64,000 nucleotides of DNA from Kribbella jejuensis. Lineage in GTDB: Bacteria; Actinomycetota; Actinomycetes; Propionibacteriales; Kribbellaceae. This document shows positions 11,121 to 16,159 of this stretch, piece after piece; within the stretch, counting starts at the first letter, position 1, and the number at the start of each line of letters is the position of its first letter. The notes below the pieces were generated by a model. The model had not been told where the DNA came from, did not search any database, and worked only from the letters and a program-made list of their open reading frames with translations. The translations under genes and the position numbers were made by a program. The stretch is taken from NCBI RefSeq assembly GCF_006715085.1, contig NZ_VFMM01000001.1:1240001-1304000 (forward strand), given 5' to 3'.

Positions 11121-12341
11121 GTGGACGGGGTGGGGTTCCGGCAGGATCTTGCCGTACTGCGGCATCGCGACGTGCGCGTCTTCGTGTCCGCACGGTTCAT
11201 CTCGATCCTCGGCTCGTCGATCGCGCCGGTGGCGCTGGTGTTCGCCGTACTCGACGTCTCCGACTCCGCGAGCGCGGTCGGCACCGTACTCGCGGCGCGC
11301 AGCATCCCGAACATCGTGTTCCTGCTGATCGGCGGCGTGATCGCGGATCGGTTGCCTCGGCACCTCGTCCTCGTCACCGCCAACACGGTCAGCGGACTGA
11401 CCCAGGGGCTGGCGGCGGCGCTCGTACTGTCCGGGCACGTCACGGTCTGGCAGCTCGCGTCGATCGAGGCGGTGAACGGGATCGCGGCCGCGTTCGTGAT
11501 GCCCGCGATGACCGGCATCCTGCCGTCGATCGTGGACCGCACCGAACTCCCCCAGGCCAACGCGATCGCCGGCTTCGCCCGCTCCGCCGCGATGATCGGC
11601 GGCGGCGCGGTGGCCGGGGTGATCGTCGGCCTGACCAGCCCCGGCGTCGGGTTGGCGGTCGACGGCCTGACGTTCCTGGTCGGAGCTTTGTTGCTGTCCC
11701 GGTTGGCGATCCCGCGGATCGAACGCGCGGCCAGCTCTTTGCTGAGCGACCTGCGCGAGGGCTGGCACGAATTCGCGTCCCGGCAGTGGGTGTGGGTGAT
11801 CGTGCTCGCGTTCGGCCTGCTCAACCTGATCTTCACCGCCTGCTACCAGGTCCTCGGCCCGGTGATCGCCGACAAGACCTTCGGCCGCACCGGCTGGGGC
11901 TTGGTCAGCGCCTGCTTCGGCGCCGGACTGGTTGCCAGCGGCATCATCATGCTCCGCCTCAAACCCCGCCGCCCACTCCGCACCGGCATGCTGGGCATGC
12001 TCCTGACCGTCCCGATCATGCTGTGCCTCGCCGTACTGCCGCAGCTGTGGGCGGTCGCGATCGCCGCGTTCTTCCTCGGCGTCGGCTTCGACATCTTCGG
12101 CATCAGCTGGGAAACCGCCCTCGGCCAACACGTCCCGATCGACAAACTCTCCCGCGTCTCCTCGTACGACATGCTCGGCTCGTTCATCGCCGGCCCGGTC
12201 GGCCAACTCACCGTCGGCTATGTCGCAGTAGCGATCAGCGCCAAAGCTGTCGAACTGTACGGCGCCGCACTCTTCGTCCTGATCACTGTCCTGACGCTCG
12301 TCGTCCCGTCCGTCTGGAACCTGCGTAGGCTGGACGCGTGA
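11121..12341 (+). CDS. MFS transporter (MFS_3/EntS-like)
   Basis: A 406-residue, about 12-helix major-facilitator protein of the type used for drug or siderophore export: RFISILGSSIAPVALVFAVL in helix 1 and GGVIADRLPRHLVL as the loop 2-3 motif (G-x-x-x-D-R). Start GTG 11121 has GGAGAGGGG directly upstream; GTG 11130 gives better spacing and cannot be excluded. TAGGCT at 11096-11101 is a possible −10. The last bases overlap the next gene (GTGA). Substrate cannot be inferred. The divergent kinase may regulate it, but no evidence shows this. Confidence 0.88.
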   Translation: MDGVGFRQDLAVLRHRDVRVFVSARFISILGSSIAPVALVFAVLDVSDSASAVGTVLAARSIPNIVFLLIGGVIADRLPRHLVLVTANTVSGLTQGLAAALVLSGHVTVWQLASIEAVNGIAAAFVMPAMTGILPSIVDRTELPQANAIAGFARSAAMIGGGAVAGVIVGLTSPGVGLAVDGLTFLVGALLLSRLAIPRIERAASSLLSDLREGWHEFASRQWVWVIVLAFGLLNLIFTACYQVLGPVIADKTFGRTGWGLVSACFGAGLVASGIIMLRLKPRRPLRTGMLGMLLTVPIMLCLAVLPQLWAVAIAAFFLGVGFDIFGISWETALGQHVPIDKLSRVSSYDMLGSFIAGPVGQLTVGYVAVAISAKAVELYGAALFVLITVLTLVVPSVWNLRRLDA

Positions 12342-12991
12342 GCTCAATCGTCCCGGGACCCAAGAAAAAGCTCGAGGAAGAAATCACCGCCGCCCGCGCC
12401 GGCGCCAAGCCTCTCGACCCGAGCACGCTGAACCCCTCGGCCCCACGCCCGGAACAGCTGACCGGCCTGGACGACTGGCCCGACTCCCTCCGCACCGCCG
12501 TCGAGGCTGAACACGCCCGCCTCACCGCGCTGGAAACCAACCGCCGCAAAACCGCCGACCGCGCCGTCCCACCACTGGTCGACGCCCTGGACACCCTCTT
12601 GACCGACATCACCACCGCGTTGGGCAAACCCAGCCTCTTCACCAAACCCGCCCCCACCCCCGCCGACCCAGGGATCGCCAACTTCCTCGGCATCCCCACC
12701 GAAGCCCTCGACGTTCGAGGCAGCCGAGGCGACCACCGCACCGCCCTCCGCACCCTCAAACAACTCCGCACCCAACTGAAAGACCAGGCAACCACCCCCG
12801 ACCACGACCGCCTAACCCGCCTAGCCACCTTCACCATCCGCCTAGCAGTAGCGCTCGAAGCCGCCCCCAACTCCATCACCACACTGGCCCCCCTAGCCCT
12901 AACCCGCTACACCCAAGCCCTCCCAGACCCCCAATGGAACAAAACCTTCCCCCAAAAACTAGCCACCTGGAAACAAGCCCTCACCAGCTAG
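12338..12991 (+). CDS. Conserved hypothetical protein coupled to MFS gene
   Basis: A 217-residue soluble protein starting at a GTG that overlaps the MFS stop codon, so it is co-translated with the transporter. It is rich in Thr, Leu, Ala and Pro with long predicted helices (LRTAVEAEHARLTALETNRRK, LTDITTALGK). No catalytic motif, signal peptide or membrane segment is visible. I do not recognise the family. Codon third positions are strongly C-biased and the coding sequence is clean to its stop, so it is very likely real. It ends 40 bp before the first repeat array. Confidence 0.7.
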   Translation: MSSIVPGPKKKLEEEITAARAGAKPLDPSTLNPSAPRPEQLTGLDDWPDSLRTAVEAEHARLTALETNRRKTADRAVPPLVDALDTLLTDITTALGKPSLFTKPAPTPADPGIANFLGIPTEALDVRGSRGDHRTALRTLKQLRTQLKDQATTPDHDRLTRLATFTIRLAVALEAAPNSITTLAPLALTRYTQALPDPQWNKTFPQKLATWKQALTS

Positions 12992-13032
12992 AACCAACCA
13001 ACTCCTCACAGAGCCCACCGCCCCCTAAAGAA

Positions 13033-13482
13033 CACCGCTCCACGGCGCCTGCCCATCGCCGCCTCCGGCGCTGTGCGCGCGACCTACCTCCGAGCCGGAG
13101 GTTGGCGACGCCGGGCCCTGGCGTTCGCAGGTGGAAAGGTCATCACTTCGCGGCGGCGGCTCTTCTGGCGCCTTCGGCGCGGCGCGCGTGAGCTACCTCC
13201 GGGCTGGAATCGTTGGCGCCGGGTGCAGAGGTTCACAGGTAGAAATGTCACCGCTTCGCGGCGGCGGTTGTGTTGTCGCCTTCGGCGTGGTGCGCGCCAG
13301 GCGACCGTTGAGGCGAGGCCTACGGCGCTACGTGCTGTCCTCACGGTGAGGCGTCACCGCTTCGCGGCGGCTGCCTTCCGGCCGCCTCCGGCGGCGTGCG
13401 CGTGAGGTGACCGCGGCGCCGAGGTCGACGGCGCCAGGTTGCCGTGATGCGTGAGTGAGATAGTGCCACCGCTTCACCACGA
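13033..13482 (+). repeat. Array A: degenerate ~107 bp tandem repeats with paired TTC-loop hairpins
   Basis: Units begin near 13033, 13140, 13248 and 13354, with a fragment at 13467, giving a period of 106-113 bp. In the best units a CCGC-TTC-GCGG hairpin (13251-13261, 13357-13367) is followed ~16-20 bp later by a second one with stem (G)CGCC/GGCG(C) (13168-13180, 13277-13287, 13382-13394). The second stem changes as base pairs between units, GCGCC/GGCGC to CCGCC/GGCGG. Open frames here are short and on both strands; no gene is supported in 12,992-13,509. The array is the reverse complement in family of array B at 14846-15300. Confidence 0.8.
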
Positions 13483-13509
13483 TTGTCCTGCACCGATCCG
13501 TTCTGTAGC

Positions 13510-14100
13510 TCACGGCCCGACGGCACCTTGCCGAACATCGTTGATCAGAGCAACCGCTTCCTCCATCCCGTACCTCTCGCGGAGAACGGCCAGGAAGCCT
13601 TCCACACTCACCGGCGGCTTCCTCAGGCGCGCCACAAGCGTCGTCACCGCCTCGAGCGCGAGTTCCGGGGCCACCGCGACGGTATTGGCGGCGAACTCAC
13701 TCGGCGAGATGACTTCAATAGCCGGCGGCATCTTGTCCTGGGGAAAGTGCTTGAGGTTGTCGGTCACAATCGCACCAGCGTGACCTGCTACCGCTGCCGC
13801 GATCACGTGCTCGTCGTCAGGATCAGGCAGGCCGAACGTACCCTCGTACGGCTGCCAGTTCTGAACCTCCGCGTCGTCGAAGTAGCTCCGCATCATCTCG
13901 ATGAGGCGAGTAGCCCGCCCCTCCGCCTCTCCCTGCGGCACACCGAACCTCACAAGCTTGTCGACCTCGCAGTACTGGAGCTCATCGAGAATCGCACTGC
14001 TCCACAGCGGCCTGTAGAGGTTCACGACGGCCAGGCTGAGTAGGAAATCGCGCTGCTTGCTGGGCCACAGGACGCAAGTATCGAGGAGGGCGGCGAACAT
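13510..14100 (-). CDS. PIN-domain protein, probable type II toxin (ribonuclease)
   Basis: A 196-residue PIN-domain protein. The four acidic residues expected of the metal-dependent RNase fold are visible: Asp7 (LLDTCVLWP), Glu40 (SSAILDEL), Asp95/96 (LPDPDDEHVIAAA) and Asp114 (IVTDNLKHFP). After residue ~130 there is an extra helical C-terminal part (ALEAVTTLVARLRKPPVSVE) not found in the smallest VapC proteins. It begins 12 bases after the HTH antitoxin gene, forming an antitoxin-toxin operon on the minus strand. Both flanks are repeat arrays. RNA target unknown. Confidence 0.88.
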   Translation of the reverse strand: MFAALLDTCVLWPSKQRDFLLSLAVVNLYRPLWSSAILDELQYCEVDKLVRFGVPQGEAEGRATRLIEMMRSYFDDAEVQNWQPYEGTFGLPDPDDEHVIAAAVAGHAGAIVTDNLKHFPQDKMPPAIEVISPSEFAANTVAVAPELALEAVTTLVARLRKPPVSVEGFLAVLRERYGMEEAVALINDVRQGAVGP

Positions 14101-14112
14101 GCACCGATACTC

Positions 14113-14646
14113 TCAGAAACTGCCTGTTGACCGCCTGTGCTCAGCACGCTTCTTCCGGATCCGGGCGAGCCTTTCGTTCACTACTACCGGATCCTCGTCC
14201 TCACTCATGTCCACTGATGTGTCGGCGATCGCCTGATACTGCCGCGTCCGTCGAAGATCGCGATAGTCCAAAGCGTCTTTGAGCAGAATCTTCCGGCGAT
14301 TCCCGATCCGCTCGGACGCAAGCTCGCCGGCGTCGATCAGTCGGACCACCGTCGGCCGACTGACTCCCAGCAAGTCAGCGACCTGCTGGGTGGTGAGCTT
14401 CGGCATCGTCGGCGAGATCGTTACTGCACGTCCAGCCTGCAGCGCCGTCACGGCTTGCACGAGCACCCTGTGCAGCGACTCAGGAACCTCGATCTGCTCG
14501 TGCTCCTCAGCACCCACAAGGAGATAGCGCCGCTCGGGCCGCTCACCGGCCTTGCTGTGATGCGCCTCGAGGAAGCTGGCGACAGCTGCCATCTGCTCCC
14601 GCTCTTCCGGCAGGTAGGTCTGCGACTCGAGCAGCTCAGTCGTCAC
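14113..14646 (-). CDS. HTH (excisionase-type) antitoxin partner of PIN toxin
   Basis: A 177-residue DNA-binding protein. The central LTTQQVADLLGVSRPTVVRL is a MerR/excisionase-like helix-turn-helix followed by a wing (ERIGNRRKILLKDALDYRD). The last ~45 residues are charged (RLARIRKKRAEHRRSTGSF) and probably cover the toxin. GTG 14646 is chosen because GGGGA lies 5 bases upstream; an in-frame TTG at 14658 is less likely. It precedes the PIN gene by 12 bases, the normal antitoxin-first order, and the TTCGAA-rich palindromes upstream suggest autoregulation. Confidence 0.85.
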   Translation of the reverse strand: MTTELLESQTYLPEEREQMAAVASFLEAHHSKAGERPERRYLLVGAEEHEQIEVPESLHRVLVQAVTALQAGRAVTISPTMPKLTTQQVADLLGVSRPTVVRLIDAGELASERIGNRRKILLKDALDYRDLRRTRQYQAIADTSVDMSEDEDPVVVNERLARIRKKRAEHRRSTGSF

Positions 14647-14658
14647 ATCAATCCCCAA

Positions 14659-14697
14659 ACGAACAAGTCGAAACGACTTTCGAAACGTTCGAATAGT
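14659..14697 (-). promoter_or_regulatory. Operator cluster upstream of the antitoxin gene
   Basis: Perfect inverted repeat TCGAAA-CGAC-TTTCGA at 14668-14683, overlapped by TTCGAA at 14679-14684 and another TTCGAA at 14688-14693; a related CGAAC lies at 14660-14664. The cluster is immediately before the antitoxin start. Such repeated palindromes are typical of autoregulated toxin-antitoxin promoters. Confidence 0.6.
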
Positions 14698-14845
14698 CTG
14701 CCATCATTCAATCATGCTTGCAAGCTTGCACGCCAAACCGGTTCACGTTGGGGAGGATCTTCCGACCGCACCGGCAGGGAATCCTCTCCACCCCGAGCTC
14801 GCAGGCCAGCGGCAACAACCCGCGATCCCACCCACAGCACCCGCA

Positions 14846-15300
14846 CACCACGGCACCCGGCGCCACCAACCTCAGCCCGCGACCGCGTGCCGCGCACCGC
14901 GCCGAAGGCGCCAAAGGACAGCCGCCGCGAAGCGGTGACCTTCCCGCGTGCGGGCCACAGCACCTGGCGCCGTCAACCCGCACCACGCAACACGCCACGC
15001 GCACCACGCCGAAGGCGCCGAAGGACAGCCGCCGCGAGAAGCGGTGTCCTTGGGGTCGCGCGGGGGGTGTGCTTTTGGTCTGCGGACCACAGCACCCGGC
15101 GCCATCAACCTCGGCCCGGCAACCACCTCACGCGCGTTGCGCCGAAGGCGCCACAAGACAGCCGCCGCGAAGCGGTGTCCGATTCAACCCGCAAACCGCA
15201 GCACCCGGCGCCGATGGGCTCCGCTCGGCATCACCTCACGCGCGCGCCGCCGGAGGCGGCCGAAAGGACAGCCGCCGCGAAGCGGTGTCCTTTGGCCGGT
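14846..15300 (+). repeat. Array B: inverted-orientation counterpart of array A
   Basis: Four units end in GCGGTG(A/T)CC at 14940, 15049, 15180 and 15290 (spacings 109, 131 and 110 bp). Each carries (G)CGCC-GAA-GGCG(C) at 14899-14911, 15007-15017, 15139-15151 and 15247-15259 (the last CCGCC-GGA-GGCGG), then CAGCCGCCGCGAAGCGGTG. Between them a CAGCACCCGGCGCC block repeats. These are the reverse complement of the elements in array A, so the two arrays face each other across the toxin-antitoxin pair. From 14698 to 14845 I see only short palindromes (TGCAAGCTTGCA at 14719-14730) and no gene. The array lies downstream of the ABC operon's last gene. Confidence 0.8.
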
Positions 15301-15331
15301 GGGGCGGTGTTCTTGGGGCGGTTCTGGTGGG

Positions 15332-16159
15332 TCAGCCCTTGATGGCGCCGCCTAGGGCGAAGGCGCCGCCTAGTTTGCGGCTGAGGAGGAGGTAGAGGAG
15401 GAGTACGGGGGTGGTGTAGATGAGGGAGTACGCCGCCAGCTGTCCGTAGTTCGGTTCGCCGTACTGGCCGAAGAACGTGAAGATGCTGACCGACGCCGGC
15501 AGCCGTTCGGGTGACAGCAGCAGCATGAACGGGACGAAGAAGTTGCCCCACATCCCGATGAAGGTGAAGATCAGCACGACCGCGATCCCCGGCCACATCA
15601 GCGGCAGCACGATCGCCCACAGCGCGCGCATGTTGCCGGCGCCGTCGACCCACGCGGCCTCTTCCAGGGACAGCGGTACGCCGTCCATGAACGTCTTCGT
15701 CAGCCAGATCGCGAACGGCAACGCCGACGTCGCCATGAACATGATGGTGCCACCAATGGTGTCCACCAGGTTCAGCTGCACGAACAACCCGTACACCGGC
15801 ACCATGACCGCCGTGATCGGCAGCCCGGTACAGAACAACACGGTCAGCAAGAACGGCCGGTTGAACCGGGTACGGAATCGCGACAGCGGATAGGCCGCCA
15901 GTACCGCGCAGATCATCGTCAGCAGCGCCGACCCACCGCACAGGATGATGCCGTTCAAAACAGGCCGGTACGTCGTGTCGGTGTTGAGTACCGCCTTGAA
16001 GTTCCCGAGCGTCGGATGCGTCGGGAACTCCACGCGCAACCCGGCCGTCCGGTTGATCGACGCGAACAGCACCCAGAGCAGCGGCAGCACGAACAGCACG
16101 CCGATGGCCAGCAGGATCAGATTCGACGTCACCTTGCTAAGACGGTCGCGCGCAATCAC
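15332..16159 (-). CDS. Carbohydrate ABC transporter permease (MalG type, CUT1)
   Basis: A 275-residue permease with about six membrane helices and the cytoplasmic EAA loop that docks the ATPase: EEAAWVDGAGNMRALWAIVLP. The GTG start overlaps the stop of the preceding permease (GTGA). It is last in a three-gene operon (binding protein, MalF type, MalG type) without an ATPase gene, so it presumably shares a general MsiK-like ATPase encoded elsewhere, as is usual in actinomycetes. Substrate is unknown because no glycosidase is adjacent. Confidence 0.92.
   Translation of the reverse strand: MIARDRLSKVTSNLILLAIGVLFVLPLLWVLFASINRTAGLRVEFPTHPTLGNFKAVLNTDTTYRPVLNGIILCGGSALLTMICAVLAAYPLSRFRTRFNRPFLLTVLFCTGLPITAVMVPVYGLFVQLNLVDTIGGTIMFMATSALPFAIWLTKTFMDGVPLSLEEAAWVDGAGNMRALWAIVLPLMWPGIAVVLIFTFIGMWGNFFVPFMLLLSPERLPASVSIFTFFGQYGEPNYGQLAAYSLIYTTPVLLLYLLLSRKLGGAFALGGAIKG

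What the first reader, a model, noticed from the sequence alone, without database searches (positions are those of the whole stretch)
12992..15331. Toxin-antitoxin pair framed by two repeat arrays in opposite orientation
The sequence shows ~107 bp degenerate repeats (four units plus a fragment) before the PIN gene and four units of 109-131 bp after the antitoxin promoter. The second set is the reverse complement of the first in family, so the PIN/HTH operon sits inside a ~2.2 kb inverted structure. I know no named element with this layout. It could be a mobile or phase-variable cassette, a recombination platform, or a pair of structured RNAs guarding the locus.
Basis: partly seen in the sequence, partly recalled or inferred. 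Interest (0 to 1): 0.78.

Follow-up and report, generated by a model that had tools for sequence, protein, structure and literature searches.

The report
Hairpin arrays walling a toxin-antitoxin pair
In soil bacteria of the genus Kribbella, tandem hairpin repeats sit just behind the ends of certain genes, sometimes as two facing arrays with variable genes such as toxin-antitoxin pairs between them; the repeats are predicted to stop transcription and would so shield whatever lies inside.

Summary
Four ~107-bp units (13029-13414, +) and four more (14879-15291, -) frame a PIN/HTH operon. The repeat family occurs in 21 of 25 Kribbella genomes searched and 0 of 14 from other genera of the order. 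Each unit has two short hairpins and a T-rich tract. 57 of 70 array clusters lie behind a stop codon on their own strand (median 26 nt), so the "inverted structure" is two converging genes, each followed by its own array. In five scanned genomes, neighbouring arrays were 16 convergent, 0 divergent, 1 tandem.

The operon moves without the arrays: relatives share at most 13524-14710, and the same gene pair is empty in 13 of 21 genomes. Yet the association is not chance: 5 of 9 loci of this PIN kind in six array-bearing genomes lie between facing arrays.

Best reading: REP-like tandem terminators walling recurrent insertion pockets; termination and insulation are inferred. No RAYT transposase was found in 16 of 16 Kribbella genomes, so these are not classical REPs; nothing supports a mobile or invertible cassette.

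The parts
12338..12991 (+). left resident gene (217 aa, no Pfam family); its stop codon precedes the + array by 37 nt
   Evidence: orthologue in 22 of 38 Kribbella genomes at E<=1e-20
13029..13414 (+). left array, four two-hairpin units (13029-13091, 13137-13200, 13245-13308, 13351-13414)
13467..13489 (+). degenerate fragment of a fifth unit
   Evidence: inverted pairs I22-I24 (75-78%)
13510..14100 (-). PIN_3-domain toxin, 196 aa
   Evidence: NCBIfam RSP_2648 PIN below that model's cut-off
14113..14646 (-). HTH_17 / excisionase-type antitoxin, probably 177 aa from GTG 14646 (181 aa if from TTG 14658)
14665..14730 (.). three palindromes upstream of the antitoxin, operator-like (role inferred)
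   Evidence: 14665-14679, 14679-14693, 14719-14730
13524..14710 (-). toxin-antitoxin block shared with nine other Kribbella loci; widest extent of the matches, no array in it
14879..15291 (-). right array, four units (15227-15291, 15119-15181, 14986-15050, 14879-14941)
15332..16132 (-). right resident gene, ABC-transporter permease (BPD_transp_1); its stop codon precedes the - array by 40 nt

Best explanation
The two arrays belong to a Kribbella-restricted family of ~107-bp two-hairpin repeats that sit just behind gene ends and point away from the gene; they likely work as tandem transcription terminators that would insulate the pocket between two converging genes, and the PIN/HTH operon was likely inserted into that pocket as a separate unit. 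Shown: the family and its spread, its place behind stop codons, the facing-pair bias, the hairpins and T-rich tract, the empty and differently filled versions of the same site, the toxin-antitoxin block ending outside the arrays, and the excess of this PIN kind inside facing arrays. Inferred: that the hairpins end transcription, that this shields cargo and neighbours from read-through, and that shielding is why toxin-antitoxin pairs persist there. How units spread and multiply is unknown.
For: Place: 57 of 70 array clusters follow a same-strand stop codon, 53 within 100 nt, median 26 (my own codon-usage gene caller). Terminator form: GC hairpin then a tract with 57% T against 15% further on (150 units); the unit nearest the stop keeps the outer-stem A in 51 of 54, against 30 of 41 second and 25 of 55 later units; 9 terminator-like sites in 12900-15400 against 2.0 +- 1.5 in shuffles, 5 of the 9 at array hairpins on the array's strand. 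Structure: 26 double-changed cells against 3.4 in shuffles. Pairing: 16 convergent, 0 divergent, 1 tandem neighbour within 10 kb among 82 clusters (P 3e-9 against 1/4). Separate insertion: same gene pair with gap <=255 bp in 13 of 21 genomes and >1.7 kb in 8, with one + and one - unit facing each other in the 227-bp gap of G017; shared block 13524-14710. A second PIN/HTH kind lies between facing arrays at the citrate-synthase gene in G000 (L014) and at another site in G014 (L161), and shares only its operon, 80% over 1120 bp. Enrichment: 5 of 9 loci between facing arrays, 0.009 expected uniformly, 0.58 if only 50 hotspots per genome were open (P 1e-4).
Against: 13 of 70 clusters lie behind a divergent gene START (median 177 nt), which terminators of annotated genes do not explain. 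The T tract is short and interrupted; a consensus unit folds only modestly better than shuffles (z -1.98; -0.90 for the AGGTCA form). Pocket and array are separable: window-type PIN relatives in L113-L120 have no confident array match (best 20.1 bits at L113), and four of those genomes (G003, G009, G015, G021) do carry arrays elsewhere, which makes 5 of 13 rather than 5 of 9; filled sites without arrays exist (G003, G049 at the window site). All PIN matches are below that model's curated cut-off. More units at filled sites is weak evidence (P 0.037 and 0.025, relatedness not controlled), and 15 of 32 paired against 24 of 50 unpaired clusters have several units, i.e. no difference (counted).
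Confidence: 0.6

Rival explanations
1. Chance co-residence in tolerant ground: the spaces between converging genes accept both repeats and foreign genes, and the arrays have no insulating role.
For: The citrate-synthase site holds insertions in genomes without array matches (e.g. G049, G024, G010); 5 of 8 array-less toxin-antitoxin relatives also sit beside converging genes (L114, L117, L118, L119, L120; my reading).
Against: The excess of this PIN kind between facing arrays stays at P 1e-4 when only 50 hotspots per genome are allowed; the facing-pair bias and the decline of the outer stem from first to later units are not predicted.
Confidence: 0.27
2. A REP-like mobile repeat acting as single-stranded DNA: the complement strand forms C(GNA)G mini-hairpins cut or copied by an unknown enzyme, and the 3'-end position is only where insertion is tolerated.
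For: Loops keep T-N-C with a free middle base: HP1 T 121/126, C 124/126, middle T91 C18 G9 A8; HP2 T 126/129, C 128/129, i.e. G-N-A on the other strand, a loop recalled as unusually stable in DNA (one search gave a listing only). The family is dispersed over non-homologous genes.
Against: No Y1 transposase (PF01797) in 16 of 16 Kribbella genomes; no recently homogenised copies, linkers between arrays are near the shuffled baseline (0.57 against 0.553). 24 and 21 of 150 units did not fit the 4-bp stem rule and were left out of the loop counts.
Confidence: 0.2
3. 3'-untranslated-region RNA elements that slow decay or feed regulatory RNAs, without terminating transcription.
For: Same-strand position right behind stop codons; REPs are credited with such roles in passages of PMC1525189 and PMC3733652.
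Against: No Rfam match in the window stretch at E<=1 or in five loci at gathering scores other than a tRNA; the T-rich tract is not needed for this role.
Confidence: 0.12
4. The frame is a mobile or invertible cassette that recombines through its inverted arrays.
For: Inverted arrays at both sides; different cargo at the same site.
Against: Shared toxin-antitoxin blocks exclude the arrays; longest exact inverted match 21 nt; the two arrays of a pair are no more alike than unrelated arrays of the same genome (linkers 0.562 against 0.575).
Confidence: 0.04

Closest known systems
REP / BIME / REPIN repeats (RAYT-associated)
   Same: Short dispersed palindromic repeats behind genes and between converging genes; tandem clusters that include flanking DNA (passages of PMC3733652 and PMC3116915); proposed terminator, mRNA-stabilising and insertion-target roles (PMC1525189 passages).
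   Different: Two hairpins per ~107-bp unit, head to tail; no GTAG or CGTC tag in the core consensus; no RAYT; 55 units in 15 clusters in the own genome.
Intrinsic (hairpin plus T-tract) transcription terminators
   Same: GC-rich stem, T-rich tract, position behind stop codons, strongest form nearest the stop.
   Different: Repeated up to nine times (L009), with a second conserved hairpin and a ~107-bp period; termination not shown.
PIN / HTH type II toxin-antitoxin operons
   Same: PIN_3 toxin behind an excisionase-type HTH gene, palindromes upstream.
   Different: Nothing unusual in the genes themselves; the setting between facing arrays is the unusual part.

Membership tests
RAYT-associated REP / REPIN | GTAG or CGTC tetranucleotide at one end (PMC3733652 passages) | tested here: not met
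   consensus of 31 units shows neither at the foot of either hairpin (read by eye)
RAYT-associated REP / REPIN | Y1 (RAYT) transposase in the genome | tested here: not met
   0 of 16 Kribbella genomes, 12 with and 4 without arrays; the control set rings in 5 of 14
RAYT-associated REP / REPIN | usually more than 100 copies per genome (PMC2817692, abstract start in a listing) | tested here: not met
   55 own, up to 63 in a relative; lower bounds, since only 134 candidates per genome were scored
RAYT-associated REP / REPIN | extragenic, mainly behind or between converging genes | tested here: met
   57 of 70 clusters
Intrinsic terminator | stable hairpin followed by a T-rich tract behind a gene | tested here: met
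   the tract is interrupted
Intrinsic terminator | transcripts end there | not testable with these tools
   no transcript data held
Invertible or mobile cassette | long identical inverted ends or cargo that travels with its ends | tested here: not met
   21-nt longest exact match; shared blocks exclude arrays
PIN/HTH toxin-antitoxin | PIN-domain gene adjacent to a DNA-binding antitoxin gene | tested here: met
PIN/HTH toxin-antitoxin | toxicity and neutralisation | not testable with these tools
   needs expression tests

The most novel reading that the evidence does not exclude
Kribbella chromosomes keep a small set of fixed pockets at gene ends, walled by inward-facing tandem terminator arrays, and these insulated pockets are recurrent landing sites where toxin-antitoxin and immunity genes come and go without disturbing, or being disturbed by, the resident genes.
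Probability: 0.35. Interest if true: 0.72.

Novelty: new variant of a known kind. Interest (0 to 1): 0.55.

Why it matters
Where a bacterium can keep newly gained toxin-antitoxin genes is usually put down to tolerant spacing. Here a sequence-defined, countable feature (facing hairpin arrays at gene ends) marks such places, with empty and filled versions of the same site across one genus. That makes it testable whether transcriptional insulation decides which sites retain dangerous cargo. It also adds a REP-like family that manages without the usual transposase.

Tried and rejected
Mobile or invertible cassette: rejected on shared-block limits, 21-nt identity and unlike pair partners. RAYT-driven REPs: no Y1 transposase. 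Known RNA family: no Rfam match in the array stretches. tRNA as the missing upstream gene in exceptional arrays: ARAGORN found one tRNA in 12 loci, not at an array. Native terminator as the ancestor: the exact long hairpin AGCCGCCGCGAA-loop-TTCGCGGCGGCT occurs at 12 places in 9 of 25 Kribbella genomes, 10 verified and 1 probably at the citrate-synthase or ABC-permease ends; the same letters behind two unrelated genes argue for a dispersed family, so I dropped that idea. Array amplification tied to cargo: only weak. Arrays of one pair as inverted copies: not supported. A first regular-expression scan timed out.

Data handling: the unit list and later holds 196 of the 197 matches (one 18.4-bit match in L037 was left out by oversight); one search used matches at E<=1e-3 only (55 of 57 own). 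Regions favoured places with facing matches; those did not. One search's table had two slips (G000 at the citrate-synthase site, G018 at the window site); one search gives the mended figures. The gene caller is my own codon-usage script, not a standard annotation. Whole-genome covariance scans scored 134-150 candidates per genome, so copy numbers are lower bounds.

Full report
What is there. The window's two arrays are real. Units share a ~50-nt core, AGG(A/T)CACCGC-TNC-GCGGCGGCTGTCTTGTTGGCCGCC-TNC-GGCGGC, and a ~57-nt linker. Two hairpins are supported by the alignment: 95.7% of cells pair against 92.6% in shuffles, 26 doubly changed cells against 3.4, nearly all in the second hairpin; the count of pairs with a double change does not exceed shuffles (3 against 1.9, 109 of 500). 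Related sequences inflate such figures.

Whose family. A covariance model finds 57 matches in the own genome at E<=0.1, 55 at E<=0.001, and matches in 20 of 24 other genomes of the genus (1 to 63 each) but in 0 of 14 from other genera of the order. Contig lengths identify several of these as Kribbella (2,422,912, 615,154, 2,315,199, 132,621 bases). An exact 21-mer scan of 84,980 species gave 14 stretches, 12 in Kribbella; the two others (Microbacterium, Ideonella) are single weak copies of 27 and 31 bits.

Where the arrays sit. 57 of 70 clusters follow a stop codon on their own strand, 53 of them within 100 nt, median 26; 13 follow the start of a divergent gene, median 177 nt. In G000, G012, G013, G014 and G019 I count 82 clusters; among neighbours within 10 kb 16 pairs face each other, none diverge, one is tandem. 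So the 'inverted structure' is what two converging gene ends with one array each look like. That both ends of the same space carry arrays so often is itself not explained by independent placement; pair partners are not copies of each other.

Period and linkers. 103 of 126 neighbour spacings are 92-135 bp, chiefly 99-116. Linkers are alike within an array (0.716) but near the shuffled baseline between arrays (0.57 against 0.553), slightly above it at the same site in other genomes (0.62). A CCGGCG motif recurs in the linkers of 16 of 38 arrays against at most 9 in 20 shuffles, so linkers probably share an origin.

Terminator-like build. The first hairpin is followed by a tract with 57% T (15% beyond). 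The unit nearest the stop codon keeps the outer stem (A at column 4 in 51 of 54; 30 of 41 second, 25 of 55 later; at least five of six outer pairs 42 of 54 against 51 of 96, P 0.003). The window stretch has 9 terminator-like sites against 2.0 +- 1.5; 5 of them are the array hairpins on the array's strand, one is the operon's palindrome, three lie on the other strand. Free energy is only modestly below shuffles for consensus units (z -1.98, -0.90), far below for the stop-proximal hairpins at L014 and L065 (z -7.2, -6.4).

Loop rule. On the array strand both loops read T-N-C with a free middle base (126 and 129 of 150 units fit the stem rule). The complement is G-N-A closed by C-G, recalled as an unusually stable DNA mini-hairpin. 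I cannot say whether DNA or RNA is selected.

Empty and filled sites. The window's gene pair (217-aa gene and ABC permease) was compared in 21 genomes: gap at most 255 bp in 13, 1.7-5.8 kb in 8. G017 has one unit on each side facing the other in a 227-bp gap; G012 has a single unit in 102 bp. Filled sites carry the PIN/HTH pair (own), a short-chain-dehydrogenase-like gene (G011, G007), DUF222-HNH genes (G013, G019) or others; G003 and G049 are filled without arrays. At the citrate-synthase site 27 of 35 genomes could be measured (gaps 47 to 2644 bp); the own genome holds another PIN/HTH pair between facing arrays, G012 only facing units 88 bp apart.

Does the pair belong to the arrays? The window's block shared with nine loci spans at most 13524-14710. 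Eight of the nine (L113-L120) have no confident array match; L113 has a 20-bit one, and L118 begins 118 bases before the block. One, in K. jiaozuonensis, lies between arrays at another site (L033). The second PIN/HTH kind lies between facing arrays in two genomes at two sites and again shares only its operon. In six genomes, nine loci match the RSP_2648 PIN model (all below its curated cut-off); five lie between facing arrays against 0.009 expected uniformly or 0.58 with 50 hotspots per genome (P 1.3e-13 and 1e-4). Counting four further array-bearing genomes where I saw only the window-type locus, it is 5 of 13. Other cargo between facing arrays includes Barstar (L030), SMI1/KNR4 (L028), a nucleotidyltransferase (L040), RibD_C (L027, L043), a short-chain dehydrogenase (L029) and a ParD-like gene below cut-off (L039).

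Reading. Tandem terminators at gene ends, walling pockets where cargo is gained and lost, explain position, orientation, the decline of the outer stem along the array and the tolerance of toxin-antitoxin cargo. Termination and insulation are inferred. Searches for print on such repeats in Kribbella (open-access library only) listed no paper about them.

Noticed in passing
L052, L055, L060, L064, L121, L141, L142: DUF222-HNH (13E12-type) genes cluster at arrays: 9 of 47 listed genes in G012, G013, G014 and one contig of G019 lie within 5 kb of an array (0.94 expected), 7 of 9 on the array's strand. A homing-like link is possible.
   Followed up: partly
L013 5574-6414, L028 4002, L036, L044, L046 4078-4938, L054 9148, L059 4885: Arrays behind the START of divergent genes, pointing away; unknown transcripts or a different role.
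   Followed up: no
L014 5455-5515, L065 5005-5065, L124 1511-1544: A long perfect hairpin AGCCGCCGCGAA...TTCGCGGCGGCT behind two unrelated genes, whose 3' arm equals part of the array core.
   Followed up: partly
L161 3380-4440 and L014 5986-7058: A second PIN/HTH kind, 80% and 86% identical proteins, between facing arrays at two different sites in two species.
   Followed up: yes
window 14665-14730: Three palindromes upstream of the antitoxin gene, probably its operator.
   Followed up: no
L167 5216-10392: Tandem run of several HTH/PIN pairs in one genome (G014) without arrays.
   Followed up: no
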